From: Flavobacteriaceae bacterium
Lineage (GTDB): Bacteria > Bacteroidota > Bacteroidia > Flavobacteriales > Flavobacteriaceae
Direction: 5' to 3'
DNA: 64,000 nt
Assembly: GCA_002723075.1 (NCBI GenBank)
Contig: PBNJ01000022.1
Span: forward strand, 1 to 64,000
The notes under the pieces are model-generated. The model saw only the letters and a list, made by a program, of their open reading frames with translations. It was not told the origin of the DNA and searched no databases. The translations under genes were made by a program, and so were the position numbers. Position 1 is the first letter of the stretch; every line of letters begins with the position of its first letter. This document shows positions 1 through 46,779 of the stretch, piece after piece.

Positions 1-513
1 AGAACTGAATTTGTAAATTCTTATGGCAACAACTCATCGTCAAGTTTAAATATGCTTGTTAATGATTATGTTTATTACTATGAAAAAGGTCTAAGAACAA
101 ATAAATTTGGTATACCCGCCGGTAGATGGGCATTAAAGCGCCCTCAAAATGTTGAAGCTTTCTATGCTAAAAATTTATCTAAAATTCTTGCTATCGAAGC
201 TCTTGAGGCTTGTAGTAATTTCTTTATCGGTAAAAGCAAGATTTCCAATAATATTGATGGTGATAGCTTTAAATCATACTTAGATTACCTAGAGGGTCAA
301 AATTTACTATCAAACTCCATTTTAGATGCTTTCAGGGATGCAAATACAAAAATGCAATTATTAGAGGATAATTTTTCAGAAATAGTCGAGAATGATAATT
401 TGAAACTTCTAGAAGTTTTTCAAGAATTACAAGAAGGAGTTATTCTGTTAAAAACTGATATGATTTCTATAATGGATATAAGCGTCGACTACATGGATGC
501 TGACGGTGACTAA
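1..513 (+). CDS. Imelysin family (peptidase M75-like) periplasmic protein, C-terminal part; 5' end lies outside the window
   Basis: Frame 1 is open from base 1 (RTEFVNSYGNNSSSSLNMLVNDYVYYYEKGLRTNKFGIPAGRW...). NDYVYYYEKGLR..KFGIPAGRW and the C-terminal ELQ..VILLKTDM..ISVDYMDADGD resemble the C-terminus of Bacteroidota imelysin proteins. Confidence 0.8.
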   Translation, partial: RTEFVNSYGNNSSSSLNMLVNDYVYYYEKGLRTNKFGIPAGRWALKRPQNVEAFYAKNLSKILAIEALEACSNFFIGKSKISNNIDGDSFKSYLDYLEGQNLLSNSILDAFRDANTKMQLLEDNFSEIVENDNLKLLEVFQELQEGVILLKTDMISIMDISVDYMDADGD

Positions 514-518
514 AGTTT

Positions 519-1889
519 ATGAACATAAATAGTTTAAACAATTACATAAACTCAAAAACTTCTCCTAGTCCTCTTGTAATATTTAGAATTGCATTCGGAT
601 TATTAATTTTTTTTAGTATTCTCCGCTTTTGGTCTAATGGATGGATTAAATCGCTTTATCTAGATCCAATATTTCATTTCTCATATTTGGGCTTTTCTTG
701 GGTCAAGCCTGTTGGAAACTATACATACTTAATCTTTATATTATGTATGTTGTCATCACTGGGTTTTGCATTGGGCTATAAGTATAAGTTATCCTCAATA
801 ATGCTTTTTTTGAGCTTTACATACATAGAGTTGATGGACAAAACGACATATCTTAATCATTATTATTTGATTAGCATATTGGCATTTATGTTGATTTTTT
901 TGCCAGCTGCCAACTATTTTTCCATCGATTCTTTTAAGAATAATAAGGATAAACTAATTCCGAGATGGAGTGTGGATTCAATTAAGGTAATGTTATGCAT
1001 AGTTTATTTCTATGCAGGTTTTGCAAAAATTAATTATGACTGGCTTATTCATGCTCAACCCTTAAAAATCTGGCTTCAAGGAAGTTATGACATTCCATTA
1101 ATTGGTGAATTATTACAAAAAAAATGGGTTCATTACACAATGAGTTGGGGGGGGATGTTATATGATTGTTTAATTCCTTTCCTGCTATTTATTAAACGGA
1201 CTAGATGGTTTGCATTTTTTTTAGTTGTAATTTTTCATGTACTGACTAAAGTTTTATTTCCTGCTATTGGAATGTTCCCTTACATAATGATTATTAGCTG
1301 CCTTATTTTCTTTAATTATTCATATCATGACCAAATCATTTTATTTCTAAGAAGGTTATTCGATAAGACCGGAATATATAAAGACCTTAAAGAAAAGATT
1401 GAGCAACCAAAAATTTTAAATCATAGTCGAAATTCACTGTACATAATTGCTGGATTTTTATTAATGCAAATTTTAATTCCACTACGTTATAAACTTTATC
1501 CAGGCGAACTGTTTTGGACAGAACAAGGCTATCGATTTTCATGGAGGGTAATGTTAGTTGAAAAAAGAGGTCATACTGATTTTAGAATTAAAAGCTCTGA
1601 TGACAATCAAGAGTTTTATGTTAACAATGAAGATTTTTTAACTCCTTTTCAAGAAAAACAAATGAGCTTTCAACCAGATTTTATTGTCGAATTTGCTCAA
1701 TTTTTAGGTGATTACTATTCAGAAAAAGGAATGAACAATGTTGAAGTTTATGTAGATGCTTTTGCAACACTTAATGGAAGAAAGAGTGAACGTTTAATTG
1801 ACCCTAAAACTAATTTATATGGAATTAAAAACTCCATTTTACACAAAGATTGGATTAATCCATATCCACATGAGATTATTAAATTATAG
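519..1889 (+). CDS. HTTM / vitamin K-dependent gamma-carboxylase (GGCX)-like integral membrane protein, full length
   Basis: 456 aa polytopic protein. LMDKTTYLNHYYLISILAFML, YFYAGFAKINYDWL, FHVLTKVLFPAIGMFPYIM and C-terminal EQGYRFSWRVMLVEKRGH / VYVDAFATLNGRKSERLIDP resemble successive GGCX segments. Confidence 0.85.
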   Translation: MNINSLNNYINSKTSPSPLVIFRIAFGLLIFFSILRFWSNGWIKSLYLDPIFHFSYLGFSWVKPVGNYTYLIFILCMLSSLGFALGYKYKLSSIMLFLSFTYIELMDKTTYLNHYYLISILAFMLIFLPAANYFSIDSFKNNKDKLIPRWSVDSIKVMLCIVYFYAGFAKINYDWLIHAQPLKIWLQGSYDIPLIGELLQKKWVHYTMSWGGMLYDCLIPFLLFIKRTRWFAFFLVVIFHVLTKVLFPAIGMFPYIMIISCLIFFNYSYHDQIILFLRRLFDKTGIYKDLKEKIEQPKILNHSRNSLYIIAGFLLMQILIPLRYKLYPGELFWTEQGYRFSWRVMLVEKRGHTDFRIKSSDDNQEFYVNNEDFLTPFQEKQMSFQPDFIVEFAQFLGDYYSEKGMNNVEVYVDAFATLNGRKSERLIDPKTNLYGIKNSILHKDWINPYPHEIIKL

Positions 1890-4296
1890 CAATAAACTAT
1901 TTTTCTTTCTTGTATCAGCAATTATAACTGCGCAAGAGCGTCAGCTTGACTTTTTCATTGTTGATAGTGTTTCAGAACTACCAATTGAAGGAGTTGAAGT
2001 TTATAATAGAAATCTTGGGTTAATTGAAATCTCAAATTCAGATGGAAAAGTAAGCGCATATATCGATAACATCGAGGATAATTTAACACTATTTTATTAT
2101 GGATATGATATTTTAGAAATCGAATCGTTATATCTTCAAGATGGAGCTGTTTTAAAATTAAAGCCAATAAATAAAATCTTAACTGAAGTTGAGGTTATCG
2201 CAAGAAACTCTAAAATATTTTCACTGAAAAGATTAAAAGATTACGAAGGAACTTCAATCAATTCAGGAAAAAAAAATGAGGTTATATTAATGGGTGAAAG
2301 TCTTGCTAATCTATCAACAAATAATGCAAGACAAATTTTTTCGCAAGTTCCTGGATTAAACATATTCCAAAATGATGATGCGGGCCTACAATTAAATATT
2401 GGTGGTAGGGGTTTAGACCCTAATAGAACTTCAAACTTTAATACACGTCAAAATGGATATGATATTAGTGCAGATGTTTTGGGTTATCCAGAAAGTTACT
2501 ACACCCCACCTTCAGAAGCACTAGATCGAATTGAAATTATAAGAGGTGCAGCATCGCTACAATATGGAACACAATTTGGGGGGCTAGTAAACTTTGTCTT
2601 TAAAAAACCTAAAAAGGAAAAAAAATTAAACTTTAAACTTAGAAATACTTTTGGAAGTTTTAATTTATTTACAAATTTCACTGAAGCCAGTGGGTCATTG
2701 GGGAATTTTAGCTATTATGCTTTTTATAATCAAAAACAAGGTCAAGGATTTAGACCAAACTCTGAATTTGAATCAGCAAATTCATATTTAAACATTTATT
2801 ATGATTTTAACTCCACTACCAATTTAGCTCTAGAACTAACCTATTTGAGTTATTTATCTCAACAAGCTGGAGGGCTTGACGATAAGATGTTCAAAGAGGA
2901 CCCATTACAAAGCATAAGGAGCAGAAATTGGTTCAATGTAGATTGGTTACTTTACAATATTAAACTTCTTAAGAAAATAAACGATAAAACAAATTTTTCT
3001 TTTCAATTCTTTGGTCTTGATGCAAGCAGAAAAGCAATCGGTTTTAGAGTCAACAGAGTTTCGCAGATAGATTCTAATGATGAGAGAGACCTAATAGTAG
3101 GAAATTTCAATAATTTCGGCTTTGAATCAAAACTTTTAAGGGAATATAGTTTCTTTAAAAAAAATGCTGTTTTTTTATTTGGTCTAAAATACTACAAATC
3201 AAATAATAGTTCTAATCAAGGGCCAGGATCTGCAGGGAAAGACCCTGATTTTAAATTTTACAATGATTTATATCCATATTACAATAACCAATCGAAATAT
3301 GATTATCCAAACACAAACTTCTCGTTTTTTGGAGAAAACATTTTTAAATTAAATGACCAGCTTTCTATTACGCCTGGGTTTAGATTTGAGTACATAAACA
3401 CAAAGAGTATTGGATCTTATAAACAAATTTTACTTGATGCTGCATTCAACGTAATATCAAATGAAAGTTTCAATGAAAACAGAACAAATAAACGCATTTT
3501 TCTATTATCAGGTATTGGTTTTAGTTATAAGTATAATTCATCACTAGAAATCTATTTAAATACGTCTCAAAATTACCGTTCTGTCACTTTTTCTGATATA
3601 AGCACTGTAAACCCTGCATATGCAATTGATCCAGACATCAACGACGAATCTGGCTTTACATTTGATATTGGCACTAGAGGAAATCTAAAGAATTTAATAA
3701 ATTACGACATTAGCGGTTTTGTAATAAACTATGATAACAGAATTGGGTTTATCCAAAAAGCATTGGAAGATGGCAATGTCAAAGCTTTTAGAACTAATAC
3801 TGGGCAAGCAATAATTTACGGAGTTGAGGGGATAGCTGACATCAATCTTAGAGATATTTTTTCTAATAAAAATCAGTATAACTTGAATCTATTTTCAAAC
3901 TTTTCATTATTAAACTCAGAGTATATAAGCTCAAATGAATCAGGTGTTGAAGGAAAAAAAGTTGAGTTTGTTCCTAATATAAATTTTAAAGCTGGTATAA
4001 AATTTGGATTTAAAAATTTTACAAGCTATTTACAATATTCTTATATTTCTGATCAATACTCAGACTCTTCAAATGCAATAGAATCTAATCTGAGTGGAGT
4101 GATTGGAAAGATACCAAACTACAATATAATGGACTTTTCTATGAACTGTAAATTAAACAAAGTAAAACTTGAATTAGGAGTAAATAATGTATTAAATAAA
4201 TCATATTTCACTCGCAGAGCGACAGCTTATCCGGGACCTGGAATTATTCCCTCTCCACCTAGAAACTACTATGTTACTATTCAATTTAACAACTAG
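1870..4296 (+). CDS. TonB-dependent outer-membrane receptor (FecA-like) with N-terminal carboxypeptidase-regulatory-like domain
   Basis: Signal peptide from the ATG at 1870 (MRLLNYSNKLFFFLVSAIITAQ), plug domain (RQIFSQVPGLNIFQND...LDRIEIIRGAASLQYGTQFGGLVNF), C-terminal beta-barrel ending in aromatic residues (NYYVTIQFNN). The track ORF start at 1798 lies deep inside the upstream gene, so 1870 is preferred. Confidence 0.88.
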   Translation: MRLLNYSNKLFFFLVSAIITAQERQLDFFIVDSVSELPIEGVEVYNRNLGLIEISNSDGKVSAYIDNIEDNLTLFYYGYDILEIESLYLQDGAVLKLKPINKILTEVEVIARNSKIFSLKRLKDYEGTSINSGKKNEVILMGESLANLSTNNARQIFSQVPGLNIFQNDDAGLQLNIGGRGLDPNRTSNFNTRQNGYDISADVLGYPESYYTPPSEALDRIEIIRGAASLQYGTQFGGLVNFVFKKPKKEKKLNFKLRNTFGSFNLFTNFTEASGSLGNFSYYAFYNQKQGQGFRPNSEFESANSYLNIYYDFNSTTNLALELTYLSYLSQQAGGLDDKMFKEDPLQSIRSRNWFNVDWLLYNIKLLKKINDKTNFSFQFFGLDASRKAIGFRVNRVSQIDSNDERDLIVGNFNNFGFESKLLREYSFFKKNAVFLFGLKYYKSNNSSNQGPGSAGKDPDFKFYNDLYPYYNNQSKYDYPNTNFSFFGENIFKLNDQLSITPGFRFEYINTKSIGSYKQILLDAAFNVISNESFNENRTNKRIFLLSGIGFSYKYNSSLEIYLNTSQNYRSVTFSDISTVNPAYAIDPDINDESGFTFDIGTRGNLKNLINYDISGFVINYDNRIGFIQKALEDGNVKAFRTNTGQAIIYGVEGIADINLRDIFSNKNQYNLNLFSNFSLLNSEYISSNESGVEGKKVEFVPNINFKAGIKFGFKNFTSYLQYSYISDQYSDSSNAIESNLSGVIGKIPNYNIMDFSMNCKLNKVKLELGVNNVLNKSYFTRRATAYPGPGIIPSPPRNYYVTIQFNN

Positions 4297-4312
4297 TATG
4301 CAAATTTAAATT

Positions 4313-4714
4313 ATGGATATAAGTGATGGAAATATTATCATAGTTTTTGATGGTTACTGCATATTGTGTGACAATTTTGTGAAATGGATCGCAAAAAAAG
4401 ATAAAGATTATAAAATACACTTTACAACATTCGATAGTATTTACATAAAGAAAAATTACTCCGAAATAAAGCTTAAAAATAGTGTGATTGTAATCGATTC
4501 AAAAGATAATTTATTTCAAAAATCCGAAGCCGTTATTCTTTGTTTAAAAACAATTGATTACAATAAAACTCTAATATCTGCTTTAAAAATTACACCTAAA
4601 ACAATTTTGGATATAGGGTACAGTTTGGTAGCTTTTTTCAGATATAAAATTTTTGGCAAAAAGAAAATATGTTCTTTACCTAACACTATAATTAGTGAAA
4701 GAATATTGAGCTAA
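4313..4714 (+). CDS. DCC family (DUF393) thiol-disulfide oxidoreductase-like protein
   Basis: FDGYCILCDNFVKWI matches the DGxCxLC signature of the DCC family; 133 aa. Confidence 0.8.
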   Translation: MDISDGNIIIVFDGYCILCDNFVKWIAKKDKDYKIHFTTFDSIYIKKNYSEIKLKNSVIVIDSKDNLFQKSEAVILCLKTIDYNKTLISALKITPKTILDIGYSLVAFFRYKIFGKKKICSLPNTIISERILS

Positions 4715-10891: not shown

Positions 10892-10897
10892 TGAAGG

Positions 10898-10971
10898 GTG
10901 GAAGACCGGTCTCGAACCGGCGACCTCTAGAACCACAATCTAGCGCTCTAACCAACTGAGCTACAACCACC
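10898..10971 (-). tRNA. tRNA-His (anticodon GTG)
   Basis: Minus strand GTGGTTG TA GCTC..GAGC G CTAGA TTGTGGT TCTAG AGGTC GCCGG TTCGAGA CCGGT CTTCCAC C; D, anticodon and T arms fold and a G-1 residue is available. Confidence 0.93.
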
Positions 10972-22964: not shown

Positions 22965-23036
22965 TAGCCCGTAGGGGAATCGAACCCCTCTTACCAGGAT
23001 GAAAACCTGGCGTCCTAGCCGATAGACGAACGGGCC
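22965..23036 (-). tRNA. tRNA-Glu (anticodon TTC)
   Basis: Minus strand GGCCCGTTCGTCTATCGGCTAGGACGCCAGGTTTTCATCCTGGTAAGAGGGGTTCGATTCCCCTACGGGCT folds as a cloverleaf with a TTC anticodon. Confidence 0.96.
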
Positions 23037-46379: not shown

Positions 46380-46779
46380 GGGGTCGACTGGTATTGACAG
46401 CGAGATAGATGTGACGGTAAGCAAGTCGAGCGCTGGACTACAGCTCGTAAATCTCATAGTACCACCATTTTAAATGGCGAGAATAACTACGCTCTTGCAG
46501 CCTAATCGACTGAATTATAGTAAGTCCAGGCCTTTGTCCCACTAGGTGGGAAGGTAAGATGTCTTGGTGCGGCCCTTGTTGACGGCAACACAATTCAAGG
46601 CACCATTAAAGTCAACATAGAAATCTTGGTGCTTCGACAGGATTTTAAATCAAAGAAGATAAGGTATGGATAGGCGGTTTTCGGTCAGTCTATATTCGAA
46701 AATTAAACGAAAACTAAACTTGTAGAAAGCAGTTGTGTCACTTGTTTGGACGAGGGTTCGATTCCCTCCGACTCCACCA
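46380..46779 (+). ncRNA. ssrA: tmRNA (one-piece), tag peptide GENNYALAA
   Basis: 5' GGGGTCGACTGG..., 3' GGTTCGATTCCCTCCGACTCCACCA; acceptor GGGGTCG/CGACTCC includes G3.U70. Tag ORF GGC GAG AAT AAC TAC GCT CTT GCA GCC TAA at 46476-46505. Confidence 0.97.

What the first reader, a model, noticed from the sequence alone, without database searches (positions are those of the whole stretch)
519..1889. Full-length bacterial homologue of vitamin K-dependent gamma-carboxylase (GGCX), apparently keeping the catalytic lysine
Seen: besides the N-terminal HTTM part, homology to animal GGCX seems to run to the C-terminus (EQGYRFSWRVMLVEKRGHTDFRI ... VYVDAFATLNGRKSERLIDPKTN). The segment YFYAGFAKINYDWL aligns by eye with the GGCX segment holding catalytic Lys218, placing K170 (codon 1026-1028) at that position. 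FHVLTKVLFPAIGMFPYIM also matches a GGCX block. Most bacterial HTTM proteins are described only as a membrane domain. A catalytically competent carboxylase would imply Glu-to-Gla modification or another quinone-dependent carboxylation in this bacterium.
Basis: partly seen in the sequence, partly recalled or inferred. Interest (0 to 1): 0.72.

Follow-up and report, generated by a model that had tools for sequence, protein, structure and literature searches.

The report
GGCX-like enzyme in iron-uptake operon
A marine bacterium carries a true relative of the human vitamin K-dependent carboxylase that makes clotting factors, with its catalytic core intact, as one gene of a conserved bacterial iron-uptake operon; what it modifies there is unknown and now directly testable.

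Summary
ORF 519-1889 is a 456-aa homologue of human GGCX (phmmer 1.3e-45; HTTM plus the lumenal domain; AF2 pLDDT 90.9, TM-score about 0.8 only to GGCX). K170 falls on Lys218 and is invariant in all bacterial homologues compared, with N113-H114 (N159-H160), W175, F239 and F253. Two corrections. It is not full length: similarity stops at human residue 504 of 758, so half the propeptide clamp and the Arch are missing, and the Glu-binding segment differs (L394G, D400R, K217A). And the K/NH/W/FH signature also occurs in HTTM-only proteins, so K170 does not prove carboxylation. The new result is context: the enzyme is gene 3 of a conserved operon, DUF4856 lipoprotein - IPPA-type imelysin - GGCX - FecA-like TonB receptor, found across Bacteroidota and Balneolota, sometimes beside a ferric (FutA) ABC transporter. 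In 248 genomes, 46 of 64 GGCX loci have the imelysin next door; these form one clade. No VKOR is linked, menA is present, and the partners carry no Gla-type Glu cluster. Best reading: a menaquinol-dependent GGCX-type enzyme serving iron acquisition, probably modifying the co-encoded imelysin/DUF4856 lipoproteins. Whether it makes Gla is open.

The parts
1..513 (+). C-terminal part of an imelysin-like (IPPA/PA4372-type) lipoprotein; the contig begins inside the gene; ends in the C-terminal motif YMDADGD
   Evidence: Same cluster as the intact imelysins of related loci; intact neighbour in L022 hits Peptidase_M75 PF09375 1.7e-24; window is G000:C22:1-64000, so position 1 is the contig end.
519..1889 (+). 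GGCX-like enzyme: HTTM domain plus VKGC lumenal domain, 456 aa
855..860 (+). codons of N113-H114 = human N159-H160 (Glu-binding / transition-state residues)
   Evidence: Alignment, invariant; roles from PMC12589487.
1026..1028 (+). codon of K170 = human catalytic base Lys218 (K217 is A169)
   Evidence: role of K218 from PMC12589487 and PMC9146348.
1041..1043 (+). codon of W175 = human W223 of the naphthoquinone pocket
   Evidence: 82/82.
1233..1238 (+). codons of F239-H240 = human F286-H287 (F286 lines the naphthoquinone pocket)
   Evidence: 82/82.
1870..4296 (+). TonB-dependent outer-membrane receptor, FecA-like; start codon overlaps the end of the GGCX gene by 20 nt
   Evidence: PF00593 and PF07715; best PDB match FecA 4.3e-21; overlaps of 20-23 nt are the rule in related loci.
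4313..4714 (+). DCC1-like (DUF393) thiol-disulfide oxidoreductase with CxxC, facultative last gene
   Evidence: PF04134 5.1e-16; same cluster in 7 of 69 related loci, next to the operon in 6.

Best explanation
The protein is a bacterial GGCX homologue that keeps the whole catalytic core (quinone pocket, Lys base, Asn-His of the Glu pocket, first part of the lumenal domain) but not the animal propeptide clamp. It is the third gene of a conserved iron-acquisition operon (DUF4856 lipoprotein, IPPA-type imelysin lipoprotein, GGCX, FecA-like TonB receptor). SHOWN by computation: homology, fold, active-site residues, operon conservation, one-clade origin, iron context, menaquinone synthesis gene. 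INFERRED: it sits in the inner membrane with the active site facing the periplasm; K170 deprotonates menaquinol, O2 adds, and the strong base so formed acts on an acceptor of the same operon, most likely the always-present imelysin lipoprotein (second choice DUF4856) during export, the modified lipoprotein then binding iron beside the TonB receptor. Gamma-carboxylation of a Glu is the likeliest modification but is not shown.
For: GGCX homology and fold. K218, N159, H160, W223, F286 and F299 invariant and F294, G259 nearly so. Operon: all four genes in 59 of 69 loci; nine of the other ten are on contigs that end near the operon. Census of 248 Bacteroidota genomes: 46 of 64 GGCX places have an imelysin on the same strand within 5 kb, 34 of these also DUF4856; 35 of 38 DUF4856 genes are next to GGCX. 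The operon GGCXs form one clade, support 100/99, which includes Persicobacter with ICMP - di-haem peroxidase - IPPA imelysin - GGCX, the classic imelysin iron locus (context in PMC3143127). Iron: FecA-like receptor, FutA ferric-binding protein encoded beside the operon in several loci, FEA1-related lipoprotein resemblance of DUF4856, weak. Own genome has menA.
Against: No experiment. The Glu-interaction segment differs from human (L394G, D400R, H404 not kept) and R436 is Q. Human residues 505-758 are absent. Conserved Glu residues of the partners are few, not clustered, and most also occur in homologues away from GGCX. The K/NH/W/FH signature occurs in HTTM-only proteins. No VKOR in the genome held, and VKOR is not enriched in operon genomes, 9/46 against 59/247 overall. 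A second GGCX clade lies between ribF and serS, without imelysin.
Confidence: 0.45

Rival explanations
1. Menaquinol epoxidase or oxygenase without protein carboxylation: the Lys-initiated quinol plus O2 reaction runs, but its product (epoxide, strong base, or reduced oxygen) serves something else, as was reported for the Leptospira homologue.
For: Quinone pocket and Lys base kept while the Glu-interaction segment, K217 and the propeptide exosite are changed or absent. Partners lack Gla-type Glu clusters. From memory, not retrieved here: Rishavy et al. 2005 reported epoxidase without carboxylase activity for Leptospira VKC, with divergence in the Glu-interaction region.
Against: N159 and H160, which hold the substrate Glu in human GGCX, are invariant and Y395 is mostly kept in the operon clade. 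Near-obligatory pairing with the same lipoproteins suggests a protein substrate. No VKOR for recycling.
Confidence: 0.27
2. It modifies or reduces something else in iron uptake: for example it passes menaquinol electrons to ferric iron held by imelysin/DUF4856, or modifies the TonB receptor or a small iron chelator.
For: Iron operon; the receptor gene overlaps the GGCX gene.
Against: No haem- or metal-binding motif was noted in the enzyme; the conserved residues are those of the GGCX reaction; no siderophore-synthesis gene was noted among the recurrent neighbours.
Confidence: 0.13
3. Non-catalytic role: a membrane scaffold or quinone-level sensor that kept the residues for quinone binding only.
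For: HTTM-only proteins share the signature.
Against: Invariance of the base K218 and of N159-H160 over sequences that differ by up to about 70%.
Confidence: 0.05
4. Full vitamin K-type cycle as in animals, with propeptide-bearing Gla proteins and VKOR recycling.
For: Homology of the core only.
Against: PBD-2 and Arch absent; no VKOR in the genome held and no co-occurrence in the phylum; no Gla-domain-like Glu cluster in operon partners.
Confidence: 0.03

Closest known systems
Human gamma-glutamyl carboxylase GGCX (PDB 9bvq, 9l6r, 9wf3 and others)
   Same: Fold of TM and first lumenal part (TMq mostly 0.78-0.83); K218, N159, H160, W223, F286, F294, F299, S398, W399, Y395 kept in the window protein.
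   Different: No counterpart of residues 505-758; K217A, D400R, L394G, M401V, N158L, R436Q; no C99-C450 disulfide.
Bacterial HTTM/VKGC proteins annotated by NCBI as 'HTTM domain-containing protein' (for example Paracoccus WP_271073465.1, carrying the GO term peptidyl-glutamic acid carboxylation)
   Same: Homologous over nearly the whole length with the same signature residues.
   Different: Those annotated examples (Paracoccus, Bernardetia plasmids) lie outside the imelysin operon and in other branches of the tree.
Leptospira VKD carboxylase orthologue (Rishavy et al. 2005, from memory)
   Same: Bacterial GGCX homologue with quinone epoxidase activity reported.
   Different: Sequence and context could not be fetched here, so relation to the operon clade is untested.
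Efe-like imelysin iron loci (P. aeruginosa PA4370-PA4373; Xu et al. 2011, PMC3143127)
   Same: Imelysin without the GxHxxE histidine and an iron context; Persicobacter links both layouts in one locus.
   Different: The layouts described in the passages read have an EfeB-like peroxidase and no GGCX; that paper's text has no match for HTTM, carboxylase or vitamin.
HTTM proteins of linaridin clusters (PMC9927463)
   Same: HTTM domain tied to maturation of peptides.
   Different: No VKGC lumenal domain or iron context is described there; mechanism unknown there as well.

Membership tests
GGCX homology family (HTTM + VKGC lumenal domain) | HTTM transmembrane domain | tested here: met
   PF05090 2.8e-75
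GGCX homology family (HTTM + VKGC lumenal domain) | VKGC lumenal domain | tested here: met
   PF22777 3.5e-52, positions 5-151 of 152
GGCX homology family (HTTM + VKGC lumenal domain) | GGCX fold | tested here: met
   Only GGCX entries match significantly, best E 4.6e-24
[quoted passage not shown]
   K170, 82/82 and 102/102 homologues
[quoted passage not shown]
   N113, H114, Y338; Y395 becomes H in the other bacterial clades
[quoted passage not shown]
   All kept except M401 to V344 (list from PMC12589487)
[quoted passage not shown]
   L394G, D400R, H404V; YRFSWRVM instead of YGYSWDMM
[quoted passage not shown]
   Alignment ends at human 504 of 758; PBD-2 residues lie beyond it
[quoted passage not shown]
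   No PF07884 in the genome held, 84.7% complete; no enrichment in operon genomes
[quoted passage not shown]
   menA 8.9e-71
[quoted passage not shown]
   No clusters in operon partners, but single-site modification is not excluded and other proteins were not surveyed
[quoted passage not shown]
   Needs enzyme assay
Imelysin iron-uptake locus | Imelysin-like lipoprotein in the operon | tested here: met
   PF09375 in related loci; window holds its C-terminal part
Imelysin iron-uptake locus | EfeB-like di-haem peroxidase in the operon | tested here: inconclusive
   Recurrent operon genes are DUF4856, imelysin, GGCX and receptor, but unclustered neighbours were not all scanned; a di-haem peroxidase is present in the Persicobacter variant

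The most novel reading that the evidence does not exclude
Bacteroidota make gamma-carboxyglutamate: a dedicated GGCX carboxylates specific Glu residues of surface imelysin and/or DUF4856 lipoproteins with menaquinol, O2 and CO2, creating iron-binding sites for TonB-dependent uptake, with no VKOR. This would be the first natural Gla system in bacteria known to me and would put a non-clotting, metal-acquisition use beside the animal one.
Probability: 0.2. Interest if true: 0.88.

Novelty: new variant of a known kind. Interest (0 to 1): 0.62.

Why it matters
Bacterial GGCX-like proteins have been known from sequence for two decades (Schultz 2004; Leptospira 2005, from memory) with no role established that I know of. 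A strictly conserved four-gene iron operon gives this large clade a pathway, two candidate substrates and a growth phenotype to test, and gives a smaller enzyme core for studying the GGCX reaction without the propeptide clamp. It makes the question 'does Gla exist in bacteria' directly testable by mass spectrometry on named proteins.

Tried and rejected
(1) Idea that the C-terminal DxDGD motif of the imelysins is a tag for the enzyme: rejected, because imelysins of the same type far from any GGCX also end in DGD (L164-L166). (2) Search for Gla-domain-like Glu clusters in the partners: none above background in imelysin or DUF4856; TonB receptors slightly above. (3) Linked VKOR: none. (4) Glu conserved only in GGCX-linked partners: E342/H338 of DUF4856 and E228/E252 of imelysin are invariant or nearly so in linked forms but mostly kept in the few unlinked ones too (three of each kind), so no usable signal. 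(5) Solved fold for DUF4856: confident model (pLDDT 90.9) but no significant PDB match. (6) Leptospira homologue for comparison: could not be fetched. (8) Literature linking HTTM with imelysin, or naming DUF4856: none in the held library.

Full report
OBSERVATION. The ORF at 519-1889 (+) is intact, 456 aa. It hits HTTM (PF05090, 2.8e-75) and the Vitamin K-dependent gamma-carboxylase lumenal domain (PF22777, 3.5e-52). phmmer against the PDB finds only human GGCX, E=1.3e-45, query 8-448 against human 53-504 of 758; a profile of 41 homologues gives 1.9e-85. An AlphaFold2 model from that alignment has pLDDT 90.9 and pTM 0.90, and GGCX entries are its only significant Foldseek matches, best E 4.6e-24, TM-score by query length mostly 0.78-0.83. 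This is far beyond chance.

ACTIVE SITE. I numbered the human residues from the printed alignment and checked them against the roles given for the cryo-EM structures in PMC12589487. K170 aligns to the base Lys218 without a gap; N113-H114 to N159-H160; W175 to W223; F239, F247, F253 to F286, F294, F299; Y338 to Y395; S341-W342 to S398-W399. In 82 bacterial homologues K218, N159, H160, W223, F286, H287, F299 and W399 are invariant; in a wider set of 102 bacterial sequences H287 has one exception and the others none. Differences are equally consistent: K217 to A (82/82), L394 to G (82/82), D400 to R (80/82), N158 to L (72/82), R436 to Q (65/82), M401 to V (71/82), and the C99/C450 disulfide is absent. 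In human GGCX K217 couples the TM domain to the propeptide-binding domain, so its loss fits the absence here of residues 505-758, where PBD-2 and the Arch lie.

A CAUTION ON THE LYSINE. HTTM proteins of the same bacterial family without a detectable lumenal domain keep the Lys in TM5 (3 of 3 that aligned), and two of them also keep the Asn-His pair, the Trp and the Phe-His motif. So the Lys signature marks the HTTM quinol site in general. It supports GGCX-type quinol chemistry; it does not by itself show Glu carboxylation.

OPERON. Clustering of all ORFs in 69 related loci gives a constant order: DUF4856 lipoprotein, imelysin lipoprotein, GGCX, TonB receptor. All four are found in 59 loci; nine of the other ten are on contigs that end near the operon. 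GGCX and receptor reading frames usually overlap by 20-23 nt, in the window by 20 nt (1870-1889). Families: DUF4856 PF16148 and Peptidase_M75; receptor nearest to FecA in the PDB. The window's contig starts inside the imelysin gene, so DUF4856 is not visible here but is in the closely related locus L022 (GGCX 92% identical).

CENSUS. In 248 Bacteroidota genomes, 56 besides the window's own have GGCX at 64 places: 34 with imelysin and DUF4856 adjacent, 12 with imelysin only, 18 with neither; 35 of 38 DUF4856 genes lie next to GGCX; imelysin and GGCX co-occur with Fisher p about 3e-34, not corrected for kinship. 'Adjacent' means the same strand and contig within 5 kb. The imelysin-only group often has a divergent DUF4856-like lipoprotein in that place. 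A maximum-likelihood tree puts all operon GGCXs in one clade (100/99) holding Flavobacteriaceae, Saprospiraceae, Chitinophagaceae, Cytophagaceae, Reichenbachiellaceae and Balneolaceae; one member of that clade (L170) has lost the imelysin neighbour. About half of the remaining places belong to a second clade between ribF and serS.

IRON. The operon imelysins lack the GxHxxE motif and end in DGD, like imelysins that lie beside a GxHxxE imelysin away from GGCX; I call this the IPPA type after Xu et al. 2011 (PMC3143127). In Persicobacter the order is GxHxxE imelysin, di-haem peroxidase (PF06537), IPPA-type imelysin, GGCX, which joins this operon to the published imelysin iron locus. A ferric-binding protein (FutA-like, 8.8e-90 to its PDB relatives) is encoded beside the operon in several loci. 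DUF4856 resembles FEA1-related lipoprotein weakly. In both lipoproteins about two thirds have two or more acidic residues just after the lipobox Cys, as in known Bacteroidota surface-export signals (from my own knowledge).

COFACTOR AND RECYCLING. The genome has menA but no VKOR (genome 84.7% complete). VKOR is not enriched in operon genomes, 9 of 46 against 59 of 247. A DCC1-like thiol oxidoreductase (4313-4714) ends the operon here but in few relatives. A replacement for VKOR is conceivable, not shown.

SUBSTRATE. Imelysin is the most constant partner. No Glu-rich stretch of Gla-domain density occurs in imelysins (0 of 69) and in only about 1 of 64 DUF4856 proteins; receptors 11% against 4.6% background. 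Conserved single Glu residues exist (imelysin E228, E252; DUF4856 E174, E226, E342, numbering of L053) but are mostly kept in homologues away from GGCX. So the substrate assignment rests on operon pairing only.

HORIZONTAL GAIN. In the window the operon is 25-31% GC against 39% for the rest; in nearly all other loci operon and flanks agree, while L022 shows the same dip. Of 13 genus members only the window's genome and G002 have a match. In other members the slot between IMPDH and HMG-CoA lyase holds a different three-gene module (G003, G012), and in G001 a FecA-like receptor plus FutA-like protein lies beside HMG-CoA lyase. These genomes are incomplete, so absence in some is uncertain.

NOVELTY. 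Bacterial GGCX homologues are known and annotated (NCBI GO term; HTTM reviewed in PMC5343777). No paper in the held library links HTTM with imelysin or names DUF4856; subscription journals are largely missing from it. I file the protein as a member of the GGCX homology family, not as a proven carboxylase, and rate the iron-operon clade a new variant of a known kind.

Noticed in passing
1-4714: The operon island has 25-31% GC against 39% elsewhere in the window, and the slot between IMPDH and HMG-CoA lyase holds other gene modules in genus mates, including a FecA-like receptor with FutA-like protein in G001: a variable slot for uptake modules, likely gained horizontally.
   Followed up: partly
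L179:4907-5632 and L180:4720-5436: Directly upstream of GGCX genes of another clade lies a very acidic, Glu-rich DUF4382-like lipoprotein ending in a run of ten or more Asp: a possible substrate for that clade.
   Followed up: no
L167, L168, L169, L171-L174, L183: A second GGCX-like clade in Flavobacteriaceae sits between ribF and serS, with H in place of Y395 and the motif HRLSWRMM; function unknown.
   Followed up: partly
L022:5668-6828: DUF4856 gives a confident model (pLDDT 90.9) with no significant match to any solved structure; conserved motifs EHkWDE and HxxSEGxGF look like a metal site.
   Followed up: partly
imelysins of L022-L090 and L164-L166: Imelysins of this type end exactly in D/S-x-D-G-D at the C-terminus, inside and outside GGCX operons; meaning unknown.
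   Followed up: partly
L091:7491-7880 and window 4313-4714: DCC1/DUF393 thiol oxidoreductases lie beside GGCX-like genes in unrelated branches (Paracoccus and this genus); possible redox partner.
   Followed up: no
L032:11769-15552 (-): Two further imelysin-cluster genes lie close to the operon in Winogradskyella endarachnes, on the opposite strand.
   Followed up: no
46380-46779: tmRNA gene; tRNAs at 10897-10970 and 22965-23036 on the minus strand.
   Followed up: no
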